From: Embleya hyalina
Lineage (GTDB): Bacteria > Actinomycetota > Actinomycetes > Streptomycetales > Streptomycetaceae
Assembly (NCBI RefSeq): GCF_003967355.1
Contig: NZ_BIFH01000015.1
Location: forward strand, 1-64,000
Length of the DNA: 64,000 nt
Direction: 5' to 3'
Below are positions 8,057-64,000 of the stretch, piece after piece. The notes below the pieces were generated by a model, which saw only the letters and a program-made list of their open reading frames with translations, was not told where the DNA came from and ran no database searches. How positions within the stretch are numbered: position 1 is the stretch's first letter; the number at the start of each line of letters is the position of its first letter. The position numbers and the translations under genes were made by a program.

Positions 8057-8078
8057 GTCATCCACCTCCGGACATGGC

Positions 8079-8118: not shown

Positions 8119-8155
8119 ACGGTGATTCGGAACGCCTGGAGCGTCCGACCCGGCC

Positions 8156-8677
<522 letters not shown>

Positions 8678-9874: not shown

Positions 9875-9976
9875 GGGGGTGCCTCCATGTCATTGGCGTC
9901 CGCTATATGACGCCAGTGAGAACAAGGATACGGGCGGGCCGGCACAAGACCGGTCCGCCCGTTCCGTGGAGCGCTA

Positions 9977-10603
9977 CTACTTGGAGTAGAGCTCGACGAT
10001 CAACTGCTCCTGCACCTGCGTGTCGATGACCTGACGCGCCGGGAGGGAGTGCACGAGGATGCGCATCTTGCCCGGGATGACCTCGAGCCAGGCCGGGACG
10101 GTGCGCTCGCCGGCCTCGGCGCGGGCGACCACGAACGGGGTCAGCTCGACCGAGTCCTTGCGGACCTCGATGATGTCGTTGTCGGAGACCCGGAACGACG
10201 GGATGTCCGTCTTGACGCCGTTGACCACGATGTGACCGTGGCGCACGAGCTGACGGGCGTGGTCACGCGACTTGGCGAAGCCCGCGCGGTAGACCACGTT
10301 GTCCAGGCGCGACTCGAGGATGCGAAGCAGGTTCTCGCCGGTCTTGCCCTGGCGACGGTTCGCTTCCTCGTAGTAGCCCTTGAACTGCTTCTCGAGAACG
10401 CCGTAGATGCGCGCGCACTTCTGCTTCTCGCGCATCTGCAGCAGGTACTCGCTGTCCTTGGTACGGCCACGACCGTGCTCGCCCGGCGGGTAGGGGCGGA
10501 TCTCGATCGGGCACTTCGGGCCCTCGCACTTGCTGCCCTTGAGGAACAGCTTCATCTTCTCGCGACGGCAGCGCTTGCAGTCCGCGCCGGTGTAACGCGC
10601 CAT
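9977..10603 (-). CDS. rpsD: 30S ribosomal protein S4, zinc-binding (C+) form
   Basis: S4 nucleates 30S assembly by binding the 5' domain of 16S rRNA. 208 residues, full length, with the S4 RNA-binding domain around residues 95-160 ([19 protein letters not shown]). Four N-terminal cysteines (C9, C12, C26, C31) form the classical S4 zinc knuckle. It sits between rpsK and rpoA, the arrangement seen in mycobacteria and many bacteria. As I recall, S. coelicolor instead carries a cysteine-free rpsD far from this cluster, so position and zinc type distinguish this organism. In proteobacteria S4 represses its own operon; no such site is evident here. Confidence 0.97.
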
Positions 10604-39877: not shown

Positions 39878-40490
39878 GAGGGGTCCTTCCGAGGGCTCGG
39901 ACTCACTATGCGCATACTGGACGGCCCGGGTTCATACACCGGGATAAGTCAATAGGCAGCGCAAAGGGTCAGTGTAGCCACAAGGCACACCGCTGTCCAG
40001 CCCCTATGAAGGGCCGGTCCACCACCCGGATTCGTGAACCATCCGGCAACCGTGCTTCAGGGGTGCGTCCGAAGAATTGCGCGCCCCGATCCGTTCGTCA
40101 AGGGGTTGCTTTCCCCCTGACAGCCGACGGAACCCTTCCGAGCGCCGAGAAAACCGGACCTCCGTCCCGAACTCGCGGCCTGCGGCGAGAGTCTCGTCAC
40201 AGCGGCCGACCGAGTTGGCGAGAAGCCTCGGGAAGCCGGAAAAACACGGTAGACCGCCGGTCCGACAACGCCCGGACGGCGCGCTTCGAACCGGCGGCGC
40301 GCGCCGTGGCGCACGCCCTCGGCGAGGGCACAACGACGCTGGTGCGCGGGGGTTCGGCGACTGCTCAGGGTGTTGGGAGTATCACCCTTTCGGGCGAGGC
40401 CGATCGGGGCGTATCGGGCGCCGCGCGACCCCTTCCGACGGCCCGCCGGAGCCGGCCGACCGGGTACGGGCGAGCCCGAAACCGGCCCCG
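39878..40490 (-). promoter_or_regulatory. rplL-rpoB intergenic region and rpoB promoter
   Basis: Most of a 683-bp gap with no credible gene. A strong minus-strand promoter, TGGACA (39994-39999), 17-bp spacer, TACACT (39971-39976), predicts a start near 39964 and an rpoB leader of about 87 nt. The remaining ~490 bp between it and the rplL terminator shows no ORF with homology and no second clear promoter. Confidence 0.8.
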
Positions 40491-48430: not shown

Positions 48431-49483
48431 TCAGAGTTTGGCGTTGATGAGGACCGGTTCGTTGATCAGGGTGATGCCGAAGGTCGCGGCCACGCCGTCG
48501 CGGACCTCTCGGGCCAGGGCGAGGAGGTCTTCCGTGCTGGCCCGGCCGCGGTTGGTCAGGGCCAGGGTGTGCTTGGTGGAGATGCGGGCGCGGCCCTCTC
48601 CGTAGCCCTTGGTGAAGCCCGCCCGTTCGATCAGCCAGGCCGCGGAGGTCTTCACGTGGTCGGCGCCGGACGGGTAGCGGGGCGGGGTGACGTCGGGCCC
48701 CAGGTGCCGGGCGACGCGCGCGATGAGGTCGGCGAAGGCGTCGTGGGTCAGGATCGGGTTGGTGAAGAAGGAGCCCGCGCTCCAGGTGTCGTGGTCGGCG
48801 GCGTCCAGGACCATGCCCTTGCCGCGGCGCAGTTCGAGCACGGCGGCGCGGGCGGCGGCCGGTGAGACCCGCTCCCCCGGCTCGACGCCGAGCGCGCGGG
48901 CCAGTTCGGCGTAGCGGATCGGGGCCGAGCGGCCGTCGTCGTCGTGCAGCCGGAAGTGCACGCGCAGCACCACGAAGCGGTCGTCGCCCTTGAAGACGCT
49001 GTGCCGGTAGGTGAAGCGGCACTCGGCGGCGGTGAGCGTGCGCGGGCGGCGCTCGGCGCGGTCGTAGACCTCGACGGAGGTGATCGTCTCGGCGACCTCC
49101 TGGCCGTACGCCCCGACGTTCTGCACCGGGGTGGCACCCGCGCTGCCGGGGATGCCCGCGAGGCATTCGACGCCGGACAGGCCCGCGTCGACGGCGGCGG
49201 TGACCACGTCGTCCCAGGGCACGCCGGCGTCCACGCTCAGCGCGGTGCCGTCGACGCGCAGGTCCGTGGTGGCGATCCGCAGCACGTCGCCGGGGAAGCC
49301 GTCGTCGCCGACGACCAGGTTGCTGCCGCCGCCGAGCACGAGCAGCGGGGTGCCCTGCTCGTCGGCGGCGCGGACGACCGCCAGGATCGTGTCGGTGGTC
49401 GTGGCCGTGTGGAGCCGACGGGCCGGGCCGCCGAGGCGGAGGGTGGTCAGGGCGGCGAGGGGCGCGTCGGTTTCAGGCTGCAC
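48431..49483 (-). CDS. murB: UDP-N-acetylmuramate dehydrogenase
   Basis: FAD enzyme that reduces UDP-GlcNAc-enolpyruvate to UDP-MurNAc in peptidoglycan synthesis. 350 residues from a GTG. The FAD-binding PP-loop region is LVLGGGSNLVVGDDG, followed by GIPGSAGATPVQNVGAYGQE and the catalytic Ser block SAGSFFTNPIL. A C-terminal GYGEGRARISTKHTLALTNR is typical. It is last in the minus-strand run hadA-hadB-murB. Confidence 0.96.
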   Translation of the reverse strand: MQPETDAPLAALTTLRLGGPARRLHTATTTDTILAVVRAADEQGTPLLVLGGGSNLVVGDDGFPGDVLRIATTDLRVDGTALSVDAGVPWDDVVTAAVDAGLSGVECLAGIPGSAGATPVQNVGAYGQEVAETITSVEVYDRAERRPRTLTAAECRFTYRHSVFKGDDRFVVLRVHFRLHDDDGRSAPIRYAELARALGVEPGERVSPAAARAAVLELRRGKGMVLDAADHDTWSAGSFFTNPILTHDAFADLIARVARHLGPDVTPPRYPSGADHVKTSAAWLIERAGFTKGYGEGRARISTKHTLALTNRGRASTEDLLALAREVRDGVAATFGITLINEPVLINAKL

Positions 49484-50820: not shown

Positions 50821-50896
50821 TGGTAGCGGCGACCGGACTTGAACCGGTGACACAGCGATTATGAGCCGCTTGCTCTACCGTCTGAGCTACGCCGCC
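50821..50896 (-). tRNA. tRNA-Met (anticodon CAT, elongator type)
   Basis: Minus-strand cloverleaf: acceptor GGCGGCG with CGCCGCT (one G-U pair), D-arm TAGCTCAGACGGTAGAGC, anticodon loop CTCATAA, T-arm ACCGGTTCAAGTCCGGT, and an encoded CCA end at 50821-50823. The acceptor pairs normally at position 1, so it is not the initiator. A lysidine-modified Ile tRNA also has CAT but is less likely at this location. Confidence 0.9.
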
Positions 50897-50941
50897 TCGA
50901 CGAGGCCCCCACCTGTCGCCAGGCGGGGATCCCATCGTCTG

Positions 50942-51014
50942 AGCCCCAATACGGAATCGAACCGTAGACCTTCTCCTTACCATGGAGACGCTCTACCGAC
51001 TGAGCTATTGGGGC
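50942..51014 (-). tRNA. tRNA-Thr (anticodon GGT)
   Basis: Minus-strand cloverleaf: acceptor GCCCCAA/TTGGGGC, D-arm TAGCTCAGTCGGTAGAGC, anticodon stem TCTCC/GGAGA with loop ATGGTAA, T-arm TACGGTTCGATTCCGTA. CCA is not encoded. It is transcribed with tRNA-Met and rpmG. Confidence 0.95.
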
Positions 51015-51079: not shown

Positions 51080-52909
51080 TCAGCCCTCGGTGGACCAAAC
51101 AGCCCTGGTCAGGGCCCCTTCGACGGTTTGCGCGTACACGGCCGCGGCCAGCCACGCAGCGGACAAAAGGTCGTTGTCGCCCGCGCGAAGACGCCCGAAA
51201 ACATCCCGTTCGCGGCCCGCCGCCACGTGCGTCAGACGCTCCACGAGCAGGGCTCCCGTGGCCAGTCCCACCCGACGCAGTCGGGCGCTGTCGCCGGCGG
51301 TGGAGCCGGCCAGGGCCAGGACGGGACGGCCGCCGCTGATCGCGCGTTCGACGTGCCGGTGCATCAGGTAGAGCGGGGCGGGCGGGGGCTCCTCGGCCGC
51401 GCCGGTTACGGACGGGGTCGGGTCGGCGGCGGGCAGGTCGGCGCGGTGCAGGCGCTCCAGGCCCAGGTCGATCCGGCCCAGGCGGTCCTCGGCGAGCCGC
51501 AGGGTCGGGCCCTCGCCGGGCGCGACGCCGACCGCGAGCGCCCGGATCGCCCGGTCGGCGCCGGGTTCGAGGCGGCCGACCACGCGCAGGCGCAGTCCGG
51601 GGCGGTCGGCGAGCAGGCGCAGGTTGTCCCGGTAGGCGAAGGCGGGGTCGGCGTGCGCGACGAGCAGGTGTACGGACTGCCCGGCGCATTCGGCGAGCAG
51701 GCGGTCCCGGGCGCCGGTGGTGGTGCCGAGCACGGTGACGTCGAGGAAGAGCAGGTCGGCGCCGGCGGGGCGGTCGTCGGGGGGCAGGTCGCGGTGGCCC
51801 ACGATCCGGTCGATCTGGGCGGACAGCGGGGTCTCCCACAGGGCCCGCAGCGGTTCGTCGGTCCAGGCCGCGCCGCTCGCTCGCGCGGCGCGGACGGCCT
51901 GGCCCGCGCCGAGCCGACCGTTGGCGGACACGGTGGCACCGGAGACGACGAGGCCGGCGCGGGTGAGCGCGACCGGGTCGATCGAGGTGTCGCCGAGCCG
52001 GATCGCGCGGGTGGCGGCGCCGATCGCCCGGTCGGCGCCGCCGGGGGCGACGTCGCCGATCGTGCGCAGGGTGCCGGCGGGGTCGACCGTGGTGGTGACC
52101 GCGCCGGCGAACCCCCGGGCGGTCAGGACGGGTTCGGTGAACAGGCCGTACAGGCGCAGCGAGCCGGCCGCGGCGTAGGCGCGGCGGGAGGTGCCGCGCA
52201 GCAGTTCGAGGGACTGCGGGTAGGCCGCCGCCGGGGTGCGCAACGCGTGGGCCACGTCCAGCAGTTCGCGCATGGCGGCGACGAGGTCGGCGAGCCGGTA
52301 CGCGGGGTCGCGGTCGCGGGCGGCGCGCAGGCCGGTGGCCACCGTGACGGCGGCGGCCGCGGCGCGGTGCAGGCCGGCGAGGCGGGCGGTGTGCGCGGCG
52401 CGGAGCAGGCCGGCCTGGAGTACGGCGCCGGCGCCGTCGACACCGGCGTCGACGATCGCGGCGCCGGCGGTCCAGAGGGCGTCGGCGGCGGCGCGTTCGG
52501 CGGGGGTGGGCTCGGCGGGGGTGGGGGACTCGGCGGTTGTTGCCGCCGGTTCCGCGGGCTCGGTCGTGTCGGGCGCGTCGGATGTGTTGGGTGTGTCGGT
52601 TTCGTCGGGGGCTTGGGGCTCGGCCACCGGGGCCGCGGCGGCGGCTGCGGCGCGGTGTACGCAGGCGGGAGCCAGCAGGCAGCTGCAGCGCAGGTCGGCG
52701 GTGGTGGTGACGGCGCCGGTCGGGATGTACAGGGTCAGTTCGGCGTCCTCGCCGACGGTGATCCGCACCGTGTCGCCGTCGTGTTCGATCGGGCAGGCGA
52801 GGAGTTTGCCGATCGCGGCGTCGAGGCGTTTGCGCAGGCGCGGGGTGAGTGCTTCGACGATGTCGGCGGTGACGTCGGGGGCGACCGGTGGGAGGCCCTG
52901 CGTGCTCAT
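51080..52909 (-). CDS. SWIM zinc-finger protein (YehQ-like), last gene of the MoxR-VWA operon
   Basis: 609 residues. Residues about 1-70 contain LTPRLRKRLDAAIGKLLACP. A SWIM finger follows with the pattern C75-x-C77-x5-C83-x-H85 (RCSCLLAPACVH). A Pro/Thr/Glu-rich linker (about 90-140) leads to a large alpha-helical region with no motif I recognise. SWIM fingers bind DNA or protein partners; the analogous E. coli gene is yehQ. The ATG overlaps the stop of the preceding DUF5682-VWA gene by four bases. Its 3' end lies 65 bp before the tRNA-Thr gene. The longer open frame through the upstream gene is a shadow. Confidence 0.85.
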   Translation of the reverse strand: MSTQGLPPVAPDVTADIVEALTPRLRKRLDAAIGKLLACPIEHDGDTVRITVGEDAELTLYIPTGAVTTTADLRCSCLLAPACVHRAAAAAAAPVAEPQAPDETDTPNTSDAPDTTEPAEPAATTAESPTPAEPTPAERAAADALWTAGAAIVDAGVDGAGAVLQAGLLRAAHTARLAGLHRAAAAAVTVATGLRAARDRDPAYRLADLVAAMRELLDVAHALRTPAAAYPQSLELLRGTSRRAYAAAGSLRLYGLFTEPVLTARGFAGAVTTTVDPAGTLRTIGDVAPGGADRAIGAATRAIRLGDTSIDPVALTRAGLVVSGATVSANGRLGAGQAVRAARASGAAWTDEPLRALWETPLSAQIDRIVGHRDLPPDDRPAGADLLFLDVTVLGTTTGARDRLLAECAGQSVHLLVAHADPAFAYRDNLRLLADRPGLRLRVVGRLEPGADRAIRALAVGVAPGEGPTLRLAEDRLGRIDLGLERLHRADLPAADPTPSVTGAAEEPPPAPLYLMHRHVERAISGGRPVLALAGSTAGDSARLRRVGLATGALLVERLTHVAAGRERDVFGRLRAGDNDLLSAAWLAAAVYAQTVEGALTRAVWSTEG

Positions 52910-55900
52910 CGGACCTTCTCTCCGACCCAGCGGGCCAGTTCGGTGGGGCTCAGCGCGGCGACCGGCATGCCGGCGGCTACCAGGCGGCCGGCGACGGCGG
53001 TCGAGTAGCGCGGTCGGCCCGCGTCGTCCAGGCTCGCGCAGCCGAGGATGTGGCAGCCCGAGGAGGCGAGCGCGCGGACCTCGGCGAGCAGGCCGCCGAT
53101 CGGATAGCCCTCCTCGAAGTCGCTGACCACGGCGATCAGGGTGCGCGAGGGCACGGTGACGAGGTCGCGGGCGGCGCGCAGGCCGGCGGCGATGTGGGTG
53201 CCGCCGCCGACCTTGACCTCCAGGAGCAGGCCGAGGGGGTCGTGGACGTGTCCGGTGAGGTCGATGACCTCGGTGGAGAAGGTCAGGAAGTGGGTGCTCA
53301 GGGACGGGACGCCGGCCATGATCGAGGCGGTGAGCGCGGACCAGATGGTCGACGCCTCCATCGAGCCGGACACGTCGACCACCAGGATCAACCGCCAGTC
53401 GTTGCTGCGGCTCGCACGGGTGCGGAAGATCGGCTTCTCCGGCACCACCAGCACCGAGCCGTCGGCGGCGCGGCGGGCGGTGGTGAGGTTGGCCCGCAGG
53501 GTGCGTGGCAGGTCGAGCGCGCCGCCGGGGCGGCGGGTGGGCCGGGGGGTGGTGATGCCGGTCAGCGCGGGGCGCAGCCGGGTGGCGAGTTCGCGGGCGA
53601 GTTCGGCGACGATGCGGGCGATCAGCGGGCGGAGGAGGGCGAGTTTGCTCTCCGGGAGGCCGCCGGCGTGGGTCAGGACGGTCTTGAGCAGGTCGACGGA
53701 GGGGCGGGCGGCGGCGGGGTCGAGGTGGGTGAGCACATCGGTGCGGCCCGCTGACGCGGCGGCGGCCAGGACCTCCTCGCGGACGGCCGGGCCGAAGAGG
53801 GCGATCAGGTCCTCGGACCATTCCCGGACGCCGGGGTAGGGGGCTCCGCGGCCGGCGCCCGGGGCGTCGCCGAGGTCGCTGCGGGAGCCTTCGCCGTGGC
53901 CGGTGCCGTAGAGCTCGTCGAGCGCGCGGGCCATGCCGGATGCCGTTGGGGGGAGGCGGTCGGATTGGCGGCCGAGGATGAGTTTCCAGCGTTGGGTGGG
54001 AGGGAGGTCGTGGGTTTGTGTGTGTTCCCACCCGCCCACCCGTTCGGCGAGACCCGCAGGCTGCGGATCTACGGCATCGGCCGGGCCGGATCGGCCTCGC
54101 GGCCGACCGTCGGGCGCCGGAAGCACTGCGGCGGGCGCGGGGTTGGCGGGCTGCGGATGCGCGCCGTCGGCCGGGCTCGACGGGTCCTGCGGACCGCCGG
54201 CGGGGATCGAGGAGGCCGGGGCTGGAGCGGGGTTCGTGGGCTGCGTATTCACGGCGCTGGCCGGGCTCGATGGGTCCTGTGGGACGCTGGCGGGAATCGA
54301 GGAGGCCGGGGCTGGAGCGGGGTTCGTGGGCTGCGGATTCACGGCGTCGGCCGGGATGGAGCGGTCCTGTGGGACGCCGGCGGGAATCGAGGAGGTCGAG
54401 GCTGCGGCGGGGTGCGTGGGCTGCGGATTCACGGCGTCGGCCGGGCTTGATGGGTCCTGCGGACCGCCGGTGGGGGTCGAGGAGGCCGAGGCTGCGGCGG
54501 GTTTCGTGGGTTGTGGGGCTTCGGGGTTGGTTGGGTGTTGGGCTTGTGGGGTGGTTGGGGGGAGGAGGGCTCTTTGGGTCAGGGCCGATTTGGCGGTCAG
54601 GTCGGTGCTGGTCCACAGGGCCAGGGTGATGGGGTCCGCTTCGGTGTCCACTCGGTCGCCCAGGTGCTCGGCCAGGGTGGCGAGGACTCGGTCTCGGGCG
54701 GCGGGGGTCAGGGTGTCGAAGCCGCCTCGCAGGGCCGGGAGACGGTCCAGGAAGGAGCGGTCGGGGAGGGTGTCGACGCGGTCCAGGAGCGGGGTGAGGA
54801 TCGGGCCGCCGGCCTGGAGCAGGGGGCCGGCCGCGGTGAGCAGGCCGGTGAGTCGGCGGGTCAGTTCGGCTCGGGTCGCCGGAGTGGTCGCGGTGTCGAT
54901 CCAGGAGCCGATCCGGTCGCCGAGGACGGTCGGGTCCTCGTGCCCGAGCAGGACCCGGACGGCGCCCGCGGCGGCGGACATCAGCGGCGAGCCGTCGGCG
55001 GCCAGGCGGGCCAGCCCCGCGGTCAGCCGGACGCCGCCGAACACGTCGGCGCGCCCGGCGAGGTCGGCCAGCGCGCGGGCATCGGCCGGGTCGTCGGATC
55101 CGGTCAGGCCGTCGAGGTGGCGGACGGCGGCGGTGAGGAGGATGCGGGTGATCTCCTCGCCCGGTCCCGAGGCCGCAGCGGCCTTCGGGTCGCCGTGCTC
55201 CGCGTGCTCGGATGCGGGTGCCCCTCCCGGTTGTCCCGCCGGGTCCGTCGTGTGGTCGCCGAGGCCGCTCTCGGCATCCGGGCCGTCGGGGCCGGGGATG
55301 CCCAGGTGGCCCTTGTGGATGCGGTCGGTGAGGGTCAGGGCCGCCAGGAGGTCGGGGAGGCCGGCGATCGTCGGGAGGGATTCGGCGGTTTCGGCGAGGC
55401 GGGTCGCGGTGAGGGCCGGCAGGCCGCAGGCCGCGGCGCGTTCGAGGCCGGTGAGGATCTGGGGGGCCGTGGGGCCGCCTTCGGCGAGTTCCTGGTGGTG
55501 TTGGGCGCGGAGGGTGCCCTCGGCGGCCTGTTCCGGGGTGACGCCACGGGCGCCGGCCGCGTCGAGCAGGGCCGCCACCGACGGCGTCCAGCGCACCCGC
55601 CAGCGGGTGGTGACCGCGTCCGCGCCGCCGGTGCCGACCACCGCGGTCGGCTCGGCGTAGGGGATCCGGCAGGTCGTCAGCTGTTGCAGGAGCAGTTCCC
55701 TTCGCCGGTCGCGGTCGCCGCGCAGCGGATCCAGGCGCAGGTCGCGCTCCGCCGGGTCGGCCGGTCCGGGCAGGCCCAGTTCGGCGATCCGGCGCTCCAC
55801 CTCGGGCCCCAGGCCGCTGCGCGGCGCGGCCGGTGACGGGCGCCCGGCCCGCGTACCGACCAGCACCCGCTCCAGGGCGCGGGCGACCGAGCGGCCCCGG

Positions 55901-56967
55901 CCCAGCGGCTCGCCGTGGGTGAGCACCGTCTGCGTCGCTTCGAGCAGTTCGCCGCGCCCCGCCGCCGGCAGGCCGCGCAGGTTCGCGAGGTCGCCGGCGA
56001 TCCGGACGATCTCGCGCGCGTCGACCGGACCGCTGGGGTGTCCCTGGCCGCGCAGATCGGTGCAGATCCGTACCGCCGCGCCGATCAGCGCCTCGCGCAG
56101 CGCGGCGGGGTCGCCGGCCGACTCCAGGACGGACTGCTGCCACTCGGGGTCGCGGATGCCGGCGGGGTAGCCGGAACGGGCGTCCAGGAGCGGGTAGGTG
56201 TACGGGATCAACGACATCGTCACGTCGGCGATGTCGCCGGCGGGCGGTTCCGCGTCGCCGTCGAGCAGGGCCGGCGCGTGGAACGCGCCGAGCACCACGG
56301 TGACCCGCGCCGCCCCGGATTCCTCCGCCGCGCGCAGCGTGGACCGCATCCACGCCTCGCGGCGCAGGTCGACCGGGTCGACGGTGCCGGCGTCGCGGCG
56401 CAGGGCCCAGCCGACGGTGAGCGCGGCGCGGCGGATCGCCTCGGCGGACGAGCCCGGCGCGGTGGCCTCGACCAGCCGGTCCCACATGTCGTCCCCGGCC
56501 CGGCCGGTGAGCCGGTCGCGCAGCGCCGCGTGCAACCCGCCCGCCCCCGTGTCGGTGTCCCCCGCGTCCGCGACCGGGCCGGCCGCCCGGTCCCAGCCGG
56601 GGTGACCCAGCGGGAGGTCGCACGGGATCGCCGGTACGCCGTTGCGCGCGGCCCAGCGCAGCGCGGCCAGTTCCGGCGAGAAGTCGGCGAAGGGGTAGAA
56701 GCCGAGCCCGTGCGGTCCGGTCCCGGCCAGCGCGATCGGCGCCCGGGTGTCCTCGTGCGCGAGCCATTCCAACCAGGGCGCGGCCTCGTGCGGCAGTTCG
56801 ACGAGCAGCACGTCGGGCCGGGCCTCGTCGAGCAGCGCGGGCACCGCGGCGGCGAGCGAGGGCGCGTGGTGGCGCACGCCGATCAGGTGGGGCCGCCGGG
56901 ACGCGGCCAGGCGCGCGGCGGCCGGACGGGCCTCGTCGATGGGCCCGTCCGTACGTATGGTCGACAC
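52906..56967 (-). CDS. DUF5682-VWA fusion protein with 30-residue Pro-rich repeats
   Basis: 1353 residues from a GTG. Residues 1 to ~790 match DUF5682 (YehM-like): HLIGVRHHAPSLAAAVPALL and VLLVELPHEA near the N-terminus. Residues ~820-970 are five Pro/Ala/Ser-rich 30-residue repeats (e.g. PQPTNPAPAPASSIPAGG). The C-terminal part (about 990-1353) is a YehP/CoxE-like VWA protein. It begins TQRWKLILGRQ, with MIDAS residues D1198-x-S-x-S (DVSGSM), T1257 (GGGTHIA) and D1283 (VSDFEEG). In other bacteria I know these halves as separate genes. The frame is continuous, with no sign of a frameshift. It starts 4 nt after the AAA+ gene and overlaps the SWIM gene by 4 nt. Confidence 0.88.
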   Translation of the reverse strand: MSTIRTDGPIDEARPAAARLAASRRPHLIGVRHHAPSLAAAVPALLDEARPDVLLVELPHEAAPWLEWLAHEDTRAPIALAGTGPHGLGFYPFADFSPELAALRWAARNGVPAIPCDLPLGHPGWDRAAGPVADAGDTDTGAGGLHAALRDRLTGRAGDDMWDRLVEATAPGSSAEAIRRAALTVGWALRRDAGTVDPVDLRREAWMRSTLRAAEESGAARVTVVLGAFHAPALLDGDAEPPAGDIADVTMSLIPYTYPLLDARSGYPAGIRDPEWQQSVLESAGDPAALREALIGAAVRICTDLRGQGHPSGPVDAREIVRIAGDLANLRGLPAAGRGELLEATQTVLTHGEPLGRGRSVARALERVLVGTRAGRPSPAAPRSGLGPEVERRIAELGLPGPADPAERDLRLDPLRGDRDRRRELLLQQLTTCRIPYAEPTAVVGTGGADAVTTRWRVRWTPSVAALLDAAGARGVTPEQAAEGTLRAQHHQELAEGGPTAPQILTGLERAAACGLPALTATRLAETAESLPTIAGLPDLLAALTLTDRIHKGHLGIPGPDGPDAESGLGDHTTDPAGQPGGAPASEHAEHGDPKAAAASGPGEEITRILLTAAVRHLDGLTGSDDPADARALADLAGRADVFGGVRLTAGLARLAADGSPLMSAAAGAVRVLLGHEDPTVLGDRIGSWIDTATTPATRAELTRRLTGLLTAAGPLLQAGGPILTPLLDRVDTLPDRSFLDRLPALRGGFDTLTPAARDRVLATLAEHLGDRVDTEADPITLALWTSTDLTAKSALTQRALLPPTTPQAQHPTNPEAPQPTKPAAASASSTPTGGPQDPSSPADAVNPQPTHPAAASTSSIPAGVPQDRSIPADAVNPQPTNPAPAPASSIPASVPQDPSSPASAVNTQPTNPAPAPASSIPAGGPQDPSSPADGAHPQPANPAPAAVLPAPDGRPRGRSGPADAVDPQPAGLAERVGGWEHTQTHDLPPTQRWKLILGRQSDRLPPTASGMARALDELYGTGHGEGSRSDLGDAPGAGRGAPYPGVREWSEDLIALFGPAVREEVLAAAASAGRTDVLTHLDPAAARPSVDLLKTVLTHAGGLPESKLALLRPLIARIVAELARELATRLRPALTGITTPRPTRRPGGALDLPRTLRANLTTARRAADGSVLVVPEKPIFRTRASRSNDWRLILVVDVSGSMEASTIWSALTASIMAGVPSLSTHFLTFSTEVIDLTGHVHDPLGLLLEVKVGGGTHIAAGLRAARDLVTVPSRTLIAVVSDFEEGYPIGGLLAEVRALASSGCHILGCASLDDAGRPRYSTAVAGRLVAAGMPVAALSPTELARWVGEKVR
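54013..54076. repeat. Short dispersed element, copy B (inside the DUF5682-VWA gene)
   Basis: Contains GGTTTGTG, CCCACCCGCCCACCCGTT and GGCTGCGGATCT in the same order as 47549-47605, with a 6-bp insertion and a few changes between. Here it is coding on the minus strand, giving AERVGGWEHTQTHD at the junction between repeat linker and VWA region. Confidence 0.7.
54059..54508. repeat. 90-bp in-frame tandem repeat array (5 units)
   Basis: GGCTGCG-type unit starts recur at 54059, 54149, 54239, 54329 and 54419, and the array ends at 54508: exactly 90 bp each. Units share GGCCGGGCTCGATGGGTCCTG-like and GGAATCGAGGAGGCC sequences. The period is a multiple of three, so copy-number change would add or remove 30 residues without breaking the gene. 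Confidence 0.92.
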
Positions 56968-56971
56968 CTCG

Positions 56972-58132
56972 TCAGCCCTCCAGGACTCCGCGCAGGTCCC
57001 ACAGGGTGCGCCAGGTGGCCGAGCCGTGTTCGGCCCGTCGGCGCACCGCCGCGTCCCAGTAGGAGAGCAGCCGGGCCGCGTCGGCCGGGTCGTCCTTCTT
57101 CGCCACGCCGAGCAGGTGTCCCGGCAGCAGGCTCAGCACGTCCCGGTCGCCCGGGAAGTAGGCCGCGGCCAGCGCGAGCGAGGAGGCGACCGAGACCGCC
57201 TCGGCGGTGCTCAGCACGGTGGACGGGCGTTCGATCTCCCAGCCCTCGGCGGAGCGGCCGGTGCGCAGGTCGCGGAACGCGGTGACCAGCACCTCCAGGA
57301 CCGTGTCGTCGACGGCGTACGCCGTCCCGGTCCGCTCCACCGCGGCCCTGGCCTGGCGGCGCACCAGCGCGGTCTCCGCGTCGTGGTCGCCGATCGGGCC
57401 GACCGTCTCGAAGTTGAACCGGCGCTTGAGCGCGGCGGACATCTCCGAGACGCCCCGGTCGCGCAGGTTCGCGGTGGCGATCAGGGTGAAGCCGGGCGCG
57501 GCGTGCACCTGCGCGTCGGGGCCGCCGGCGAGTTCGGGGACCGCGATCCGCCGCTCCGAGAGCAGCGACACCAGCGCGTCCTGCACCTCGGGCAGGCAGC
57601 GGGTGACCTCCTCGATCCGGGCCACCGCGCCCGTGGTCATCGCGGTGAGCACGGGCGAGGGCACCAGGGCGCCCCGGCTGGGGCCCTGGGCGAGCAGCAG
57701 CGCGTAGTTCCAGCCGTACTTGAGCTGGTCCTCGGTGGTGCCTGCGGTGCCCTGCACGGTGAGCCCGCTGGTGCCGCAGACGGCGGCGGCGAGCAGCTCG
57801 GACAACATCGACTTGGCGGTGCCGGGCTCGCCCACCAGGAGCAGGCCGCGTTCGCCGGCGAGGGTGACCACGCAGCGCTCGACGAGGGCGCGTTCCCCGA
57901 CGAACTTGGCGCCGATGGTCAGGGCGCGGGGCAGGCCCTCGACCGGTTCGGGCAGCTTGAGTTCGTCGCCGCTGCCCATCACGAAGGTGACCACCGCGCG
58001 CGGGGTCAGCCGCCAGGCCGGCGGGCGCGGGCCCCGGTCGTAGGCGGCCAGGAACGCCAGTTCCCGGGCGTACAGGTCCTCGGGCGGGTGTATCTGGCGT
58101 GCCCCGGTGGCGGGTTCGGTTGCGGTTGCCAT
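56972..58132 (-). CDS. MoxR-family AAA+ ATPase, YehL-like
   Basis: 386 residues. Walker A GEPGTAKS at 101-108, a Walker B-like ARIEEVTR at 171-178 (the usual Asp-Glu pair appears as Glu-Glu), sensor 1 ATANLRDRG with N222, and arginine-finger candidates R237/R238 in ALKRRFN. A C-terminal helical lid follows. MoxR ATPases work with VWA-domain partners, probably as chaperone-like or activating machines; the VWA protein here is encoded by the next gene. The ATG shares a base with the previous stop (TGATG). Confidence 0.93.
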   Translation of the reverse strand: MATATEPATGARQIHPPEDLYARELAFLAAYDRGPRPPAWRLTPRAVVTFVMGSGDELKLPEPVEGLPRALTIGAKFVGERALVERCVVTLAGERGLLLVGEPGTAKSMLSELLAAAVCGTSGLTVQGTAGTTEDQLKYGWNYALLLAQGPSRGALVPSPVLTAMTTGAVARIEEVTRCLPEVQDALVSLLSERRIAVPELAGGPDAQVHAAPGFTLIATANLRDRGVSEMSAALKRRFNFETVGPIGDHDAETALVRRQARAAVERTGTAYAVDDTVLEVLVTAFRDLRTGRSAEGWEIERPSTVLSTAEAVSVASSLALAAAYFPGDRDVLSLLPGHLLGVAKKDDPADAARLLSYWDAAVRRRAEHGSATWRTLWDLRGVLEG

Positions 58133-61100
58133 CAGCGGCGGCCCTTCCGGGAGGTACGGGTGACGAGTTCCTCGAAGCCTGGCGCATCGCCGTCCTGCAC
58201 GCGCCGCCAGGCCCGGTGGAACAGTTCGGGCACGGGCAGGTCGGGCACGATCATGCCCCGCCCGGGGCTCGGGTAGAGCCCTTCCTTCCAGACCTCCAGG
58301 GGCAGTGTGGGGCTCTTCAGCGCGTTCCAGCCGCCGGGCAGGAAGAGGGAGCGGCCGGCCCGGGCCCGCTTGGCCTCCAGGACCAGGTCGGTGCCGGCGA
58401 GTTCGGTCCGGGCCTTCTTCAGCCGGGCGGGCTTCCAGCCGGTCCAGCGGGCGACCTGACGATCCGTCGGGTCCGGCAGGGCGAGCAACTGGAGGTACAG
58501 GACGGCGGCGTCCTCGCCGATGCCGTACGTCTTGGCCACCTCGGCGACCAGGTCCGGCACCGACCGGCTCGGGTCCTGCGGGACGCCGGGCGGGCCGTCG
58601 GCGCGCAGGAGTGTCTCGAAGGCCGGGTCGAGGATGCGGCGGAAGGCGGCGAAGGCGACGGACCGCGCCTCGCCGCGCAGCGCGATCAGCCGGTCGAACC
58701 ACGGGTCGTCGGCGCCGGTGAAGCCGGCGGTGCGCACCAGGGTGAACTCGTTGTCGGTGTACCAGGGGCGCAACCAGAAGCGGTCCTCGATCCGGAGCAC
58801 GCCGTCGGGGTCGGCGGCGCCGGTGGCGGGCAGTCCGGCCGCCTCGCGCAACAGCTTGGAGGTGGCGCCGCGTTCGGCGTACTCCACGTCCAGGTCGACC
58901 ACCAGGCCCGGATCGGTCACCCGCTTGCGCAGCAGGTCGAGCACGCGCGGCAGATGCGGGCGCAGCGGATCGCCGTAGGGCAGCCGGTAGGCCAGCCAGG
59001 CGAGCGCGGTCACCGCCAGGCCCAGGGTGTGGCCGGCGGGCACGGCCTCGGGGTCGGAGGCGACGAGGTTGCCGTCCTTGTCGACGCTGTGGGTGGAGGT
59101 GCCGGTGATCCACCGGTGGGACTCGGGGGTGAGGACGTATTCGAACGCGGCGGCGGGGATGCCCCGGACGTCCGCCGCGACCTCCTCGGGCAGCCGCAAC
59201 ACCCGCCCGAAGGCGGCCTCCCAGGCCCGGCTGCCGGCCGCGATGTCCCAGCCGCTCGTCCACAGGTCGGCGACGGCCTCGGGCCGCTCGGGCACCAGCG
59301 CGCCCTGGACGCCGGCGCGCGCCGCGCGGTCGAGCCGGTCCAACTGCTCGCGGGCGCTGGTCGCCTCGGCGGCCCTGAGGCCGAGCACCGCCCGCTGGTC
59401 CTTGTCCAGATCGCCGGCGACCAGCCCGGCGAGCAGCAGGCTCGCCTCGGCGCGGCCCAATCCGGTGCCCTCGGTCAGGGCGGACACCGCGTCCGGGCGC
59501 CACGGGACCGGGCCGTGGGCACGAACGCCCTCGACGACGGCGGCGACGCGTTCGGGGGACATCGGCTCGCGGTAGCGGTGTTCCTCGTGGGTGGTGAAGC
59601 CGTCGACCGCCTCGAACCGGCCCGACGGGTCGTGGTCGAGCGCGAGCCAGTGCTGCGTGTCGTTGCCGTAGGTGTACTGGCTGTCCAGGATGAACACGGT
59701 GCGGTCGGCGCGGCGCAGGACGCGCCCCTTGCGCTTGAGGTCCTTCTTCTTGACTTTGGGCTCGCAGAGCACGACCCGGCGCAGCGTCCCGTCGGGGGCG
59801 CCCAGCGGGCCGGTGGCGAGCGCCTCCAGAAGCAGCAGCAGCGAGGCGCGGTGTGCGTCGGACGTCAACGGCGACAGGGCGCGGGCGACCATCGCCGCGC
59901 GGTGGTCGAGCAGGTCGTGCCAGGCGGCCACGTGGGGTTCCTTCAGCCCCTCTTCCTCGGTGGTCCACTCGGCCGGGCCGTCGGTGCGCGCCAGCATCGC
60001 GGCCACCGAGGTGATGTGTTCGAGCGTGGTCCAGGTGCCCCGGCCCTGATCGCCGTAGTAGCGGCAGCCGACGCCGGCGATACCGGCCACCGCCGGGCAC
60101 AGCTCGTTGTCCCGGCCGTGCTCGGGGCCGGTGGGCACCGCTCGGGGCTTGTGCTCCTTGCGGTTCACCTTGCCGAAGTCGCGCAGCCGCTCGGCGAGTC
60201 GGGCGGTCTCCCCGACCAGCGAGGCGACGCCGCGGACCAGGCCGGCGTGTGCGATCGCGGGCAGCAGGCGGCGCACCGGTTCGGTGCGGATCGCGTCCGG
60301 CTTGGCGGGCTTGTTCGGCGACTTCTTGGCGGCCTCGTACTCGGCCCGGGCCCGGTCGCGGTCCGCGCGCACCTCCTCGACCAGTACGACGGCCTGCTCG
60401 TGGGTGATCGCGCGCAGCGCCAGCGAGCCGGCCTCGTCGCGCGGTCGCAGCGCGTGCCAGAACGCGGGCGCCGGCACCACCCGGGTACCGGCGGCCAGCC
60501 CGGAGCCGGCCCCGCAGTGGCCGAGCAGCACGCCCTCGTGCCACAGCGTCACGGCGCCGTTGTGTGGGGCGACCGCCGTCGGGGTCGCGCCGCCGGGCAG
60601 GCGCAGCGCGCCGATCGGGATCTCCAGCGGCCGCTGGTCCCAGTGCCGCCGGCCGCGCACGGGCGCGCTCACGGTGTGGCCGTCGACCGAGCCGGCGGTG
60701 AGGGTGTCGCCGTCGATCCGGACCCAGTGGCCCACGAGCGTGCCGTCGGTGCCGAACGGGGTCTGCTCCAGGCCGGGCAGCAGCGGCAACAACTCGCACG
60801 CGTCGGGCACCAGCGAGCCGCCGTCGGCGACCGCCGCGGCGAACGGGGCGGGCAGCGAGGCGCGGCCGTGGGTGCCGGTGGCCGGGTCGAACTCGGTCCA
60901 CTTGCGGTCCGACCGCTCGTAGTCGAGCGACCAGTGGGTGGTGCCGTCGGTGAGCACGCCCCGGCGCGTGGGCAGCTTGGTGTCGCCGGCGTACAGCGGC
61001 CGGCCGCCGGTGGTGACGCCGCCGTCGGGCAGCGCGAGGGAGAGCATTTCGCCGTCGGAGCCGTTGTTCGGCGGTCCGCCGAGCAGGAACGTCTCGGTCG

Positions 61101-63006
61101 GGCGCGCGGACCAGTAGCCCTCCCAGTCGTAGTCGGTGTTGTACCAGGCGACCAGGAGTTGTCCGTCGACGTAGCGGTACTGGGTGCGCTGCCAGCTGGT
61201 GCGGTCCTTGGGCACGCGCGGTTCGTGGTCGAGCAGGATGCCTTCGGGGCCGACCACGAGCGCGCGCTTCTCGGTGGAGAGCACGAGCGCGGGCCAGGAC
61301 TCGTCGAGCCGGATGTCGCCCTTGCGGCCGAGCAGTTCGACGGCCTCGTCGAGCGCGGGCCAGCCGAGTTCGTCGTAGACGCCGGCGCGCAGCGTGGTCG
61401 CGAGCAGCGCGACGGCGTCGAACGCGCGGACGCGGGCGACCAGGTCGGGGGTCACGTCCTCGACCACGCCGCGGAAGCCGTCGAGCACCTTGAGCTCGCG
61501 CTCGGCGTCGGGCAGGCCGGCCGCGGAGGTGAGCCGTTCGCCCAGCTCGGTGAGCCGGCGGGCGAGCACGGGGCGCAGCACGGGGTGGGCGGCGGTGGCC
61601 GGCTGGTGCTTGGCGTTCAGGCCGCCGACGGCGGTCAGGAGCAGGGCCAGGAAACGTTCGTCGGCGGCGACCGCGGTCAGCTCGCGCCGGCCCTCGGCGT
61701 CGTCGTCCCACCACTCGCCCAGGAGGAAGGTGTGCTGCGGGTCGGGGTCGGTCACGGGTATGCGCTCGGCCAGGGCCAGGTCCAGCAGGTCCAGGTCGAC
61801 ACCGGTGCGGTAGCGGCTGCCGCTGAACAGGGTGACCGGTACCGCCTCGGCGCGCAGCGTGTCGGCCATCCGGGCGACCAGCGCGGCGGTGCGCGCGCTG
61901 CGTCCGGTGTAGCCCCAGCCGCGCTGACGGTGCGCGGTCCAGCGGGTGACCCACTGGGCCCGGGCGCCGGGTTCGAGGTCGCCCTCGACGAGCAGGTCCA
62001 GGACGCCGGCCTCGTCGAGCAGGTCGAGCCAGAAGTCGTCGACCTCGGCGTTGGACGCCGAACCGCCGGGGGTGGGCAGGATGTCGAGGAGGCGGGCCCG
62101 CGACTCGGGCTCGGCGCCGGCCAGTGCCGCGATCGGGGCGCGGTTGACCTTCCAGAAGGACAGCGGCGCGCGGGCGATCGCGGGGGTGGCGAGCAGTTCG
62201 CGCAGCAGCGCGCGTTCCTCGCCGGTGTGGTCGCCGCCGGCCGCGCGGATCAGCGCGCGGGCGTCCTCGGCCAGGCCGGCGTACGGCGGCATGCCCGCGG
62301 TGCAGCGCTCGACCGCCAGTTGGCGGAACTGTACCCACGCCTCGGCGGGGCCGAGGCGGGCGGCGAGCGACTTGGCGTGTTCCTTGAGCGCCTTGGCGGT
62401 CAGCGCGCCGGCGAAGGCGAACTCCAGGAAGACCGCGCGCAGTCGCTCCTCCTCGATCGCCAGGTTGTGCACCCGCTCGGCCTCGCGGGCCTTGCCGAAG
62501 AACGCGGACGCGTAGGTCTTGTTGTCGTGCTTGAGGAAGATCCGCGCGGCCTGCTCGTGGAAGGTGGGCAGGAAGTGCGGTACGGCCCGGCCGAGGCGGA
62601 TCGCGAGCTGGTCGAAGCCGTCCTTGGCCGCGCCGGGCTTGGTCTTGGCCTGCCGGTCCAGGCGTTCGATGTCGCGGACCAGGGCCAGCGCGTGGTGTCC
62701 GTTCGCCGGGTCGTTGACCAGCGCCCAGGCGGGGAAGCCGAGCGCCTCGCGGCGGACCTGGCCCACCTCGGGGGCGTCCGCATCGCGGGTCAGCCCCAGG
62801 AAGCCGAGCGCCAGGTCCTCGGCCTCGCCCAGGGTGCCCGGGACCAGCCGGACGATCGGGCGGTCGCCGAACGCGGGGTGCAGGTAGGTGCGCACGGTGA
62901 GCGTGTCGATGTCGTCGCCGGCGAGGGTGCCGACGGGCAGGACCGCGCCCGCGTCCAGCAGGACGCGCGACGGGTCGGGGGTGGTGCCCGTGCCGGTGGT
63001 GTTCAT
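58132..63006 (-). CDS. Large (1624 aa) uncharacterised protein of the MoxR-VWA operon
   Basis: I recognise no defined domain in most of this protein. The N-terminal half is helical. A central region is rich in aromatic residues and beta-like segments (RTQYRYVDGQLLVAWYNTDY, ETFLLGGPPNNGSDGEMLSL), suggesting a propeller or repeat fold. Near the C-terminus ALPDPTDRQVARWTGWKPAR and LVLEAKRARAGRSLFLPGGW look like a winged-helix unit; this is inference. It overlaps the upstream DUF4132 gene by 4 nt (ATGA) and the AAA+ gene by 1 nt, so all are made together. The ATG at 63006 follows the usual coupling pattern; the open frame above it is the DUF4132 gene's shadow. It has no counterpart I can name in the E. 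coli yeh cluster. Confidence 0.8.
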   Translation of the reverse strand: MNTTGTGTTPDPSRVLLDAGAVLPVGTLAGDDIDTLTVRTYLHPAFGDRPIVRLVPGTLGEAEDLALGFLGLTRDADAPEVGQVRREALGFPAWALVNDPANGHHALALVRDIERLDRQAKTKPGAAKDGFDQLAIRLGRAVPHFLPTFHEQAARIFLKHDNKTYASAFFGKAREAERVHNLAIEEERLRAVFLEFAFAGALTAKALKEHAKSLAARLGPAEAWVQFRQLAVERCTAGMPPYAGLAEDARALIRAAGGDHTGEERALLRELLATPAIARAPLSFWKVNRAPIAALAGAEPESRARLLDILPTPGGSASNAEVDDFWLDLLDEAGVLDLLVEGDLEPGARAQWVTRWTAHRQRGWGYTGRSARTAALVARMADTLRAEAVPVTLFSGSRYRTGVDLDLLDLALAERIPVTDPDPQHTFLLGEWWDDDAEGRRELTAVAADERFLALLLTAVGGLNAKHQPATAAHPVLRPVLARRLTELGERLTSAAGLPDAERELKVLDGFRGVVEDVTPDLVARVRAFDAVALLATTLRAGVYDELGWPALDEAVELLGRKGDIRLDESWPALVLSTEKRALVVGPEGILLDHEPRVPKDRTSWQRTQYRYVDGQLLVAWYNTDYDWEGYWSARPTETFLLGGPPNNGSDGEMLSLALPDGGVTTGGRPLYAGDTKLPTRRGVLTDGTTHWSLDYERSDRKWTEFDPATGTHGRASLPAPFAAAVADGGSLVPDACELLPLLPGLEQTPFGTDGTLVGHWVRIDGDTLTAGSVDGHTVSAPVRGRRHWDQRPLEIPIGALRLPGGATPTAVAPHNGAVTLWHEGVLLGHCGAGSGLAAGTRVVPAPAFWHALRPRDEAGSLALRAITHEQAVVLVEEVRADRDRARAEYEAAKKSPNKPAKPDAIRTEPVRRLLPAIAHAGLVRGVASLVGETARLAERLRDFGKVNRKEHKPRAVPTGPEHGRDNELCPAVAGIAGVGCRYYGDQGRGTWTTLEHITSVAAMLARTDGPAEWTTEEEGLKEPHVAAWHDLLDHRAAMVARALSPLTSDAHRASLLLLLEALATGPLGAPDGTLRRVVLCEPKVKKKDLKRKGRVLRRADRTVFILDSQYTYGNDTQHWLALDHDPSGRFEAVDGFTTHEEHRYREPMSPERVAAVVEGVRAHGPVPWRPDAVSALTEGTGLGRAEASLLLAGLVAGDLDKDQRAVLGLRAAEATSAREQLDRLDRAARAGVQGALVPERPEAVADLWTSGWDIAAGSRAWEAAFGRVLRLPEEVAADVRGIPAAAFEYVLTPESHRWITGTSTHSVDKDGNLVASDPEAVPAGHTLGLAVTALAWLAYRLPYGDPLRPHLPRVLDLLRKRVTDPGLVVDLDVEYAERGATSKLLREAAGLPATGAADPDGVLRIEDRFWLRPWYTDNEFTLVRTAGFTGADDPWFDRLIALRGEARSVAFAAFRRILDPAFETLLRADGPPGVPQDPSRSVPDLVAEVAKTYGIGEDAAVLYLQLLALPDPTDRQVARWTGWKPARLKKARTELAGTDLVLEAKRARAGRSLFLPGGWNALKSPTLPLEVWKEGLYPSPGRGMIVPDLPVPELFHRAWRRVQDGDAPGFEELVTRTSRKGRR

Positions 63007-63857
63007 GCCGCGTCCTCCGTGGTTTCGATCGTGCGGCCCGCGTACAGCGCGGCGCCCATCCGCATGCCCTCCGACCAGGCCACCGGCGGCACCCGGTCGA
63101 GGGTCAGCGTGCTGCCGCCCTCGGACCAGGCGACGGAGCCGGTCTCGGTCGATTCGTAGCCGTCGTAGTCGCCCAGCCACATCCGCGCCTCGATCTCGCG
63201 GCCGCCGTCGAGCACGGTGCACACGGCCTGGCCGCCGCGCACCTGGTAGCCCAGCTGGGTGGTCCGGCCGATCAGGAAGCGCAGCTGGTCGTAGCGTCCG
63301 CCGGCGAACTCCTCCACGCCGGTGCGGGCGGCGTCCACGTCGGCGGGGCGGTGCCACACCTCGCGGTAGAGCTGCTGGACGCGCTGCTCGACGCCGAGTT
63401 CGACGGCGAATTCGCGCAGGTCGTCGAGGTCGTCGAGGAGCACGGGGTGCGGGATGCGGATGGTCCGCGCGTCGAGGTAGACGGTGTCGCCGTCGGGGTC
63501 GACGATGCCGACGCCGCGCTCGGGGTCCGCGCCGCGCAGGAATCCGGCCACCGCGCCGTCCTCGCCGGTGGTGACCACCAGGTCGCGCAGCACCCGCTGC
63601 CAGGCGGGATCCGGCCACACCCGGGCCAACACCTCGACCGGGACCGGGAGCGAGCCGATCATCCAGCGCTCCACCGCGTCCAGGCAGGCCCGATCGTGCC
63701 GATCCAGCCACTCGACGAGCTGTCGCAGGCCCACCACGGCCGGATCGTCGGCGAGTTTCCCGGGCACCGACTTCAGTTGCCGCCCCTTGGCGTTGCGGCA
63801 CACCACCTTGCCGTCTTCCAAGGCGACCTCATAGTCGCCCGCCCGGATCCATCCCAC
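63003..63857 (-). CDS. DUF4132 domain protein (YehI C-terminal-like)
   Basis: 284 residues from the GTG at 63857, with GGAGGGG about seven bases upstream. The whole protein looks like the DUF4132 domain that ends the much larger YehI: KGRQLKSVPGKLADDPAVVG, QRVLRDLVVTTG, QRVQQLYREVWHRP and the closing WSEGMRMGAALYAGRTIE. Here it stands alone, without the long N-terminal part of YehI; the next gene might supply that part. First gene of the five-gene operon. Confidence 0.85.
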   Translation of the reverse strand: MGWIRAGDYEVALEDGKVVCRNAKGRQLKSVPGKLADDPAVVGLRQLVEWLDRHDRACLDAVERWMIGSLPVPVEVLARVWPDPAWQRVLRDLVVTTGEDGAVAGFLRGADPERGVGIVDPDGDTVYLDARTIRIPHPVLLDDLDDLREFAVELGVEQRVQQLYREVWHRPADVDAARTGVEEFAGGRYDQLRFLIGRTTQLGYQVRGGQAVCTVLDGGREIEARMWLGDYDGYESTETGSVAWSEGGSTLTLDRVPPVAWSEGMRMGAALYAGRTIETTEDAA

Positions 63858-64000
63858 GATCGTTCCCCTCCACGCATGTGTGCGAATGTTGGTGACAACC
63901 CGTCAACTGCCCAGCGGCACAAGGCGCTCGGCGCCCGTGATCAGGTTGGCGGGAACGTTAGCCGTCGATTCCGACAGCGCCGTCACCCGTCAGGATGAAA
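63858..64000 (-). promoter_or_regulatory. Upstream region of the MoxR-VWA operon
   Basis: 143 bp to the window edge. On the minus strand TTGACG at 63901-63906 is a good -35-like hexamer, but no matching -10 follows at 16-18 bp. GTTG-TCAC-CAAC (about 63888-63899) is a small inverted repeat next to it. The true promoter may use another sigma factor or a regulator. Confidence 0.3.

What the first reader, a model, noticed from the sequence alone, without database searches (positions are those of the whole stretch)
51080..63857. Five-gene DUF4132 / 1624-aa / MoxR AAA+ / DUF5682-VWA / SWIM operon
Seen: five minus-strand genes with overlaps of 4, 1 and 4 nt and one 4-nt gap form a single transcription unit. 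Known: MoxR ATPases pair with VWA proteins, and E. coli yehI-yehL-yehM-yehP-yehQ carries the same domain set (DUF4132, YehL AAA+, DUF5682, VWA, SWIM). Inference: this is an actinobacterial version of that machine. It is rearranged, with a standalone DUF4132 protein, an extra giant protein of unknown fold and a fused DUF5682-VWA. No cellular role is established to my knowledge; MoxR-VWA sets have been proposed to act in conflict or stress responses.
Basis: partly seen in the sequence, partly recalled or inferred. Interest (0 to 1): 0.75.

Follow-up and report, generated by a model that had tools for sequence, protein, structure and literature searches.

The report
Five-gene AAA+ machine, DNA-damage promoter
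Five overlapping genes in a filamentous soil bacterium look like one ATP-driven protein machine, related to an unexplained E. coli gene set, and relatives of this operon carry the same type of DNA-damage-responsive promoter as recA, which gives this family a testable role.

Summary
In detail: five overlapping minus-strand genes (63857-51080) encode DUF4132, a 1624-aa protein, a MoxR AAA+ ATPase, a DUF5682-VWA fusion and a SWIM-motif protein. The order is that of E. coli yehI-L-M-P-Q, so it is not rearranged. The cassette recurs in Streptomyces, Kitasatospora, Embleya and relatives: g1-g2 in 80 of 80 named loci, all five in order in 60; 16 of the other 20 are cut by contig ends. Flanks vary. 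Its MoxR forms a clade (100/99) beside true YehL, and true Yeh operons occur in the same order of bacteria, so this is a sister subtype. New here: (1) type II operons carry an actinobacterial RecA-NDp/PafBC DNA-damage promoter (core motif 82 of 103 upstream regions, 7 of 984 control genes; recA 32 of 32). The window's own site is a degenerate core form. (2) The DUF5682 N-terminus resembles TIKI/TraB/Ere hydrolases and keeps their His-Glu pair and distal His. (3) The giant protein has a beta-propeller-like core. Best reading: a DNA-damage-inducible AAA+-VWA remodelling machine with a tethered hydrolase, probably acting on protein-nucleic-acid complexes. Client and activity are inferred. A conflict-system role is the main rival.

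The parts
63955..63976 (-). RecA-NDp/PafBC-like core promoter site TGTCGG-N10-TAACGT, about 98 nt upstream of g1 (degenerate: lacks the GTG of the strict motif)
   Evidence: family-wide motif; literature consensus tTGTCRgtg-8nt-TannnT (PMC5656591 passage)
63003..63857 (-). g1, 284 aa, stand-alone DUF4132 domain (C-terminal domain of YehI)
58132..63006 (-). g2, 1624 aa; helical-looking N-terminus (from sequence only), beta-propeller-like middle, largely helical C-terminal part
60412..61395 (-). g2 residues 538-865, beta-propeller-like domain
56972..58132 (-). g3, 386 aa MoxR-class AAA+ ATPase, YehL clade, Walker A GEPGTAKS
52906..56967 (-). g4, 1353 aa, DUF5682 (YehM) fused to VWA (YehP) by a variable linker
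56233..56922 (-). g4 residues 16-245, TIKI/TraB/Ere-like hydrolase domain with H33, H34, E57, R203-E204-xx-M207, H230
52924..53589 (-). g4 residues 1127-1348, VWA domain with MIDAS (DVSGSM)
51080..52909 (-). g5, 609 aa SWIM-motif protein, YehQ-like
52655..52687 (-). g5 SWIM motif CSCLLAPACVH (residues 75-85)

Best explanation
The operon encodes one DNA-damage-inducible remodelling machine. SHOWN: five co-conserved genes forming one cassette; a MoxR motor of the YehL clade; a VWA co-chaperone with an intact MIDAS motif, fused to DUF5682; family-wide RecA-NDp/PafBC-type promoter motifs. STRONGLY SUGGESTED: the DUF5682 N-terminus is a TIKI/TraB/Ere-type hydrolase domain; g2 is an alpha-solenoid/beta-propeller scaffold. 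INFERRED: after DNA damage the MoxR hexamer pulls on the VWA partner, which has captured a client peptide. The client is presented to the tethered TIKI-like domain and clipped or remodelled. DUF4132, g2 and the SWIM protein recognise the client, probably a protein stuck on damaged nucleic acid. My component estimates: single machine 0.95; YehL sister class 0.95; damage-inducible 0.8 for the family and 0.65 for this window; TIKI-like fold 0.75; peptidase activity 0.45; acting on protein-nucleic-acid complexes 0.35.
Confidence: 0.5

Rival explanations
1. It is a biological-conflict (anti-phage or anti-plasmid) system of the MoxR-vWA kind. The damage promoter serves as an infection or prophage-induction alarm, and g2 (beta-propeller) with the SWIM protein senses the invader.
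For: Patchy accessory distribution: g2 in 7 of 296 genomes of the phylum, the own one included. MoxR tree with family-f72 rows nested among f1 rows. Complete copy on a Streptomyces atratus megaplasmid. Variable flanks. g2 and g5 diverge fastest: 45% and 48% mean identity against 79% for MoxR. GXXXTAKS Walker A shared with two of the described conflict systems. A relative sits beside type I restriction genes on an Iodobacter plasmid.
Against: PADLOC gave one weak hit in all, REase_II at E 0.0041 for the AAA+ protein, which I take as spurious. No toxin or nuclease family in Pfam for the five. recA-type promoter. In E. coli a 3.9-kb query (yehL, yehM and the start of yehP) matches in 5286 of 5426 genomes, 5165 of them over at least 80%, which looks like a core gene set.
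Confidence: 0.3
2. It is a maturation chaperone that inserts a metal or cofactor into an enzyme, like NorQ-NorD or CoxD-CoxE, in line with the old name molR for the E. coli neighbour.
For: MoxR-VWA pairs are best known for this (PMC13036017 abstract; PMC3893208 passage). The VWA belongs to the CoxE-like Pfam family.
Against: No flanking gene family is in more than 18 of 80 loci, so no client enzyme gene is fixed beside the cassette. Damage-type promoter. SWIM and TIKI-like parts are not explained. In Deinococcus radiodurans a DUF4132 gene was induced on DdrO depletion but molybdate genes were not (PMC8533742 passage).
Confidence: 0.12
3. The promoter match is real, but the machine answers a general stress (oxidative, envelope) that PafBC also controls, and has no direct tie to DNA.
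For: The PafBC regulon of mycobacteria also holds oxidative-stress genes (PMC8223512 passage).
Against: SWIM motif and a WGR-type neighbour in E. coli (yehF, annotated PF05406; that this is the WGR family is recalled). The DUF4132-g2 fusion L075 is divergent from a Macro+ART gene, and both carry the motif.
Confidence: 0.08

Closest known systems
E. coli yehI-yehL-yehM-yehP-yehQ (YehL MoxR subfamily)
   Same: Same families in the same order; MoxR 45%, VWA 35%, DUF5682 27% identity
   Different: DUF4132 reduced to 284 aa instead of 1210 aa; added 1624-aa g2 with no detectable similarity to YehI (hhalign E 0.82); YehM and YehP fused
MoxR-vWA ternary conflict systems of Kaur et al. 2020 (PMC7159879, passages)
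   Same: MoxR plus vWA plus large extra protein; GXXXTAKS Walker A as reported for their FtsH and beta-propeller systems
   Different: No VMAP, iSTAND or FtsH found by Pfam; propeller-like domain lies on a separate protein, not fused to the vWA
TIKI/TraB/Ere superfamily (PMC6254334, passages)
   Same: Fold match to HopBA1 (5t09), His-Glu pair, distal His, RExxM
   Different: First Glu replaced by Val; followed by a long helical region; fused to a VWA
RecA-NDp/PafBC regulon of Actinobacteria
   Same: Motif and 8-nt spacing match the published consensus; same motif upstream of recA in these genomes
   Different: An AAA+-VWA operon as a member was not seen in the passages read; the window's own copy is degenerate
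NorQ-NorD (PMC13036017, abstract and outline)
   Same: MoxR hexamer working through a VWA partner
   Different: No client gene fixed nearby

Membership tests
YehL subfamily of MoxR ATPases | Closest to YehL among MoxR proteins, with Walker A GEPGTAKS | tested here: met
   45% over 383 residues; tree: next to the clade holding E. coli YehL (midpoint root, no other MoxR subfamily included)
Yeh operon (yehI-L-M-P-Q) | All five families, same order | tested here: met
   (the SWIM/YehQ member by motif; see below)
Yeh operon (yehI-L-M-P-Q) | Full-length YehI (about 1100-1210 aa) | tested here: not met
   Only the DUF4132 domain in g1; g2 shows no profile match to YehI
Yeh operon (yehI-L-M-P-Q) | YehQ homologue | tested here: inconclusive
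   SWIM motif 75 of 75; colinear hhalign E 0.0035, probability 9%
MoxR-vWA ternary conflict systems (Kaur 2020) | VMAP, iSTAND or FtsH as third component | tested here: not met
   No such Pfam family among the hits of the five proteins at E up to 1
MoxR-vWA ternary conflict systems (Kaur 2020) | Beta-propeller fused C-terminal to the vWA | tested here: not met
   VWA ends the g4 protein; the propeller-like domain is in g2
TIKI/TraB/Ere superfamily (DUF5682 N-terminus) | Common alpha/beta core fold | tested here: inconclusive
TIKI/TraB/Ere superfamily (DUF5682 N-terminus) | Conserved His-Glu pair and distal His | tested here: met
   H33 41 of 42, H34 42 of 42, E57 42 of 43, H230 43 of 44 letters in 44 rows of four types; which residues correspond is my alignment of motifs
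TIKI/TraB/Ere superfamily (DUF5682 N-terminus) | Complete 2His/2Glu set | tested here: not met
   The position of the first Glu is Val in 39 of 42 (my alignment of motifs)
RecA-NDp/PafBC regulon | tTGTCRgtg-8nt-TannnT upstream of the first gene | tested here: met
   Family level: 57 strict and 82 core of 103, against 5 and 7 of 984
RecA-NDp/PafBC regulon | Same, in this window | tested here: inconclusive
   Core only, TGTCGGAATCGACGGCTAACGT; 1.3% of controls score as high
RecA-NDp/PafBC regulon | PafBC-dependent induction | not testable with these tools
   Needs expression data

The most novel reading that the evidence does not exclude
YehL-type systems are a bacterial counterpart of the p97/VCP-SPRTN pathway: a DNA-damage-induced AAA+ segregase (MoxR-VWA) with a tethered TIKI-like peptidase, a SWIM zinc-finger part and a propeller/solenoid adaptor that extracts and clips proteins trapped on damaged DNA. 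Unrelated damage regulators in three phyla would have recruited it independently: PafBC in Actinomycetota, DdrO in Deinococcota, LexA in E. coli.
Probability: 0.17. Interest if true: 0.95.

Novelty: new variant of a known kind. Interest (0 to 1): 0.77.

Why it matters
YehL is one of seven MoxR subfamilies (PMC3893208 passage), its yehL-yehM stretch is in 5286 of 5426 E. coli genomes searched, and the passages retrieved here give it no function. DUF5682 occurs in no paper of the held library. A recA-type promoter in front of most type II operons, and of loci of three of the four actinobacterial subtypes, turns 'function unknown' into a direct test: induce with DNA damage, delete, and look for clients. 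A TIKI-like hydrolase fused to a AAA+ co-chaperone would be an unfamiliar layout for an ATP-driven protein-processing machine.

Tried and rejected
Tried with little or no result. PADLOC and NCBIfam on the five proteins gave nothing informative. PDB sequence searches with g2, A1, A3 and DUF5682 gave no significant relative; g3 hit midasin. g2 against YehI by hhalign: none. TraB family (PF01963) in 79 genomes of the class: none, so Ere proteins served as the comparison. SOS-box, HAIR, CIRCE, DtxR, Zur, SigR, SigE and Nur patterns upstream of g1: none above chance (these patterns were recalled). Orphan g2-like genes of the own genome (L076, L296): no core motif.

Superseded counts. recA was first read without resolving strand and start and gave 7 of 17 strict and 9 of 25. 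With orientation resolved it is 25 of 29 strict and 29 of 29 core; three Embleya recA were skipped there for a different Walker A and added by position, 3 of 3 strict. Controls: before dropping loci of other Yeh-type systems the strict TTGTC form hit 7 of 1240 and the N7-9 form 13 of 1240 (17 of 1240 on the reverse strand, where targets have 0 of 102). I dropped 19 Yeh-type or g2-fragment loci (256 genes) because several of those hits were first genes of Yeh operons, leaving 984 control genes. The score matrix was trained on the targets, so its 87 of 102 and the scores are circular and not used as proof. The 72-cluster count reduces this.

Rejected: 'rearranged operon' (same order as E. coli); g2 as a split YehI (no similarity; but L075 is one protein with DUF4132-like, g2N and g2C parts); a housekeeping cofactor chaperone as first choice.
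Full report
1. The window lies at G000:C15:1-64000 in a 12.05-Mb genome. The host is most likely an Embleya: genome G296, given as the same genus, holds a g2 on a contig of 246,495 bases, the length of the Embleya scabrispora contig that carries L087. The operon is followed by tRNA-Thr and tRNA-Met.

2. It is a fixed cassette. Of 24 type II loci (the window, 19 chosen by DUF5682 hits, 4 by g2 hits) all hold g1-g4 and 23 hold g5; the exception, L059, is cut by its contig end. The gene caller finds all five in order in 60. Of the other 20, I checked four. L121 and L135 do have the SWIM gene by tblastn. L141 and L155 carry a g1-g2 pair with no g3-g5 in the 10 kb downstream. The other 16 are loci under 18 kb whose contigs end within 6 kb of g2 (lengths). 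Flanking genes are not conserved: the commonest flanking family is in 18 of 80 loci.

3. It is a sister type, not the local yeh operon. E. coli K-12 has yehI-yehK-yehL-yehM-yehP-yehQ. The relatives searched hold at least four kinds of DUF5682 set (the type names are mine). Type I is the true Yeh operon, with one to three YehI copies and YehL 60-65% identical to E. coli. Type II is the window type. Type III is MoxR, DUF5682 and VWA, beside sucCD-like genes in 5 of 6 loci. Type IV is VWA-MoxR-DUF5682-like. The window's genome has types II, III and IV. In a maximum-likelihood MoxR tree of 45 rows each type is one side of a branch; type II (25 rows, 100/99) lies next to type I (midpoint root, other MoxR subfamilies not included). 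Three family-f72 rows nest among f1 rows within type II, apart from four other f72 rows, which suggests transfer, and a complete copy sits on a Streptomyces atratus megaplasmid. Outside this order, Sinorhizobium has AAA-DUF5682-DUF4132-VWA-SWIM and Iodobacter has two DUF4132 genes then AAA-DUF5682-VWA-SWIM. Deinococcus taeanensis has SWIM-DUF5691-AAA-hypothetical-DUF5682-VWA. So the recurring core is MoxR-DUF5682-VWA-SWIM, and the large partner varies: DUF4132, DUF5691 or g1+g2.

4. Parts. MoxR keeps GEPGTAKS in 73 of 73. The VWA MIDAS DxSGS is in 83 of 84 g4 sequences and the SWIM motif in 75 of 75 g5. Mean pairwise identity over the same 153 pairs is 79% for MoxR, 72% for VWA, 62% for DUF4132, 60% for the DUF5682 N-domain, 48% for g5 and 45% for g2. 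The motor is constant; the presumed recognition parts diverge.

7. The promoter. A k-mer count that uses no pattern gave CGTTGTCA, GTTGTCAG and TGTCAGTG as the commonest 8-mers upstream of g1 (60, 56 and 52 of 103; single-base shuffles at most 14). The published RecA-NDp/P1 consensus is tTGTCRgtg-8nt-TannnT (PMC5656591 passage). PafBC acts through it (PMC6789036 and PMC8223512 passages). Strict TGTCRGTG-N8-TAnnnT: 57 of 103 type II operons against 5 of 984 control genes. Core TGTCRG-N10-TAnnnT: 82 of 103 against 7 of 984. By cluster of upstream sequence, 43 and 57 of 72. Spacing is 8 in 57 of 57; on the reverse strand the N7-9 form hits 0 of 102 targets and 17 of 1240 controls. Of the 21 without the core, 17 were re-read and 11 score above 12 on the (target-trained) matrix, with TTGTCACTG, TTGTCACAG or TTGTCCGAG in place of TTGTCRGTG. 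recA: 28 of 32 strict and 32 of 32 core (25 and 29 of 29, 3 of 3), out of 40 genomes with a recA hit. Genome-wide the TTGTC form has 0-27 sites per genome, 78 in one, against 0-1 for the reversed pattern (31 genomes). First genes of type I have the core in 4 of 4 (2 strict; three further type I loci are cut there) and type IV loci in 3 of 4; type III MoxR in 0 of 6. Homologues of a SWIM gene near type III have it in 1 of 4 with usable upstream sequence. The L075 fusion and the Macro+ART gene beside it both carry the motif. A macrodomain gene of S. coelicolor under RecA-NDp is UV-inducible (PMC5087735 passage).

8. The window itself. Its site, TGTCGGAATCGACGGCTAACGT at 63955-63976, is a core form, shared by the other Embleya copies with small changes. 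Its score is reached by 1.3% of control genes, so for this one genome the inference leans on the family. Its recA has the strict motif, and a PafC-type regulator is present. In the whole window only two core sites occur on either strand.

9. Other phyla. In D. taeanensis the palindrome TTACGCCAGAAACATAA starts 36 nt upstream of the first gene and is the only match in 19 kb, 0.01 expected. The pattern was written from memory of RDRM; the paper's consensus is TATGYYHTTARCRKA, from which this site departs at three positions. PMC8533742 passages say that the drA0165-drA0166 operon (DUF4132 in DRA0166) and dr2173 (WGR) of D. radiodurans are induced on DdrO depletion, and that E. coli MolR was described as in the LexA regulon. 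PMC10652928 lists molR directly before yehI. A CTG-N10-CAG lies 25 nt upstream of yehF; that this is the molR LexA box is my recall. One Deinococcus locus and one E. coli report are leads, not proof.

10. Mechanism. NorQ-NorD work shows a MoxR hexamer acting on a VWA partner and its linker (PMC13036017 abstract). By analogy, MoxR here would act through the VWA of g4 on a captured client. The variable linker between VWA and DUF5682 (26% identity over the 99 of 153 pairs long enough to compare) would let the hydrolase domain reach the client. Damage induction and the SWIM motif point to nucleic-acid-bound clients. This last step is inference, and the conflict-system reading remains open.

11. 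Novelty. Searches for DUF5682 (0 papers), DUF4132 (3), yeh gene names and MoxR with SWIM, vWA or YehL listed no paper whose title or passages seen describe this operon, its promoter or a hydrolase fold for DUF5682. A search for TIKI, ChaN, MoxR, vWA and erythromycin esterase (47 papers, 20 listed) and one for DUF5691 with SWIM, AAA, VWA and Streptomyces (none) added none. The library lacks most subscription journals. I rate it a new variant of the YehL kind with a newly testable role.

Noticed in passing
L075 (G182:C14), 1837-4254 and 5932-10182: A 1416-aa DUF4132-g2 fusion lacking the propeller region stands divergent to an 805-aa Macro + ART protein; both upstream regions carry the RecA-NDp motif, hinting at a link to ADP-ribosylation.
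   Followed up: partly
recA loci L234-L263, L294, L295: Strict RecA-NDp motif upstream of recA in 28 of 32 genomes, nearly all of the window's order, although an initial published search suggested that the mycobacterial PafBC motif is not conserved in S. venezuelae.
   Followed up: partly
L167 (Deinococcus taeanensis p_TS293_3) 6026-6042: RDRM-like palindrome 36 nt upstream of a SWIM-DUF5691-AAA-DUF5682-VWA set.
   Followed up: partly
window 40246-40267, minus strand: Second RecA-NDp-like core site of the window (TGTCGGACCGGCGGTCTACCGT); target gene not examined.
   Followed up: no
G000:C13:30212-32197 (L296) and G000:C28:47934-49394 (L076): Orphan genes encoding only the C-terminal part of g2; the C28 match holds one in-frame TGA.
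   Followed up: partly
L141, L155: g1-g2 pairs with the core damage-type motif but no MoxR, DUF5682-VWA or SWIM genes within 10 kb downstream; one of the two genomes has a 78% MoxR match elsewhere.
   Followed up: partly
L065 538-8447: Two tandem g2-like genes in one type II operon.
   Followed up: no
G337 genome: 78 exact RecA-NDp-like sites, many of near-identical sequence, far more than in the other 30 genomes searched; may be a repeat element or an expanded regulon.
   Followed up: no
window 48431-49483 and 50821-51014: MurB-like gene on the same strand and two tRNA genes just downstream of the operon.
   Followed up: no
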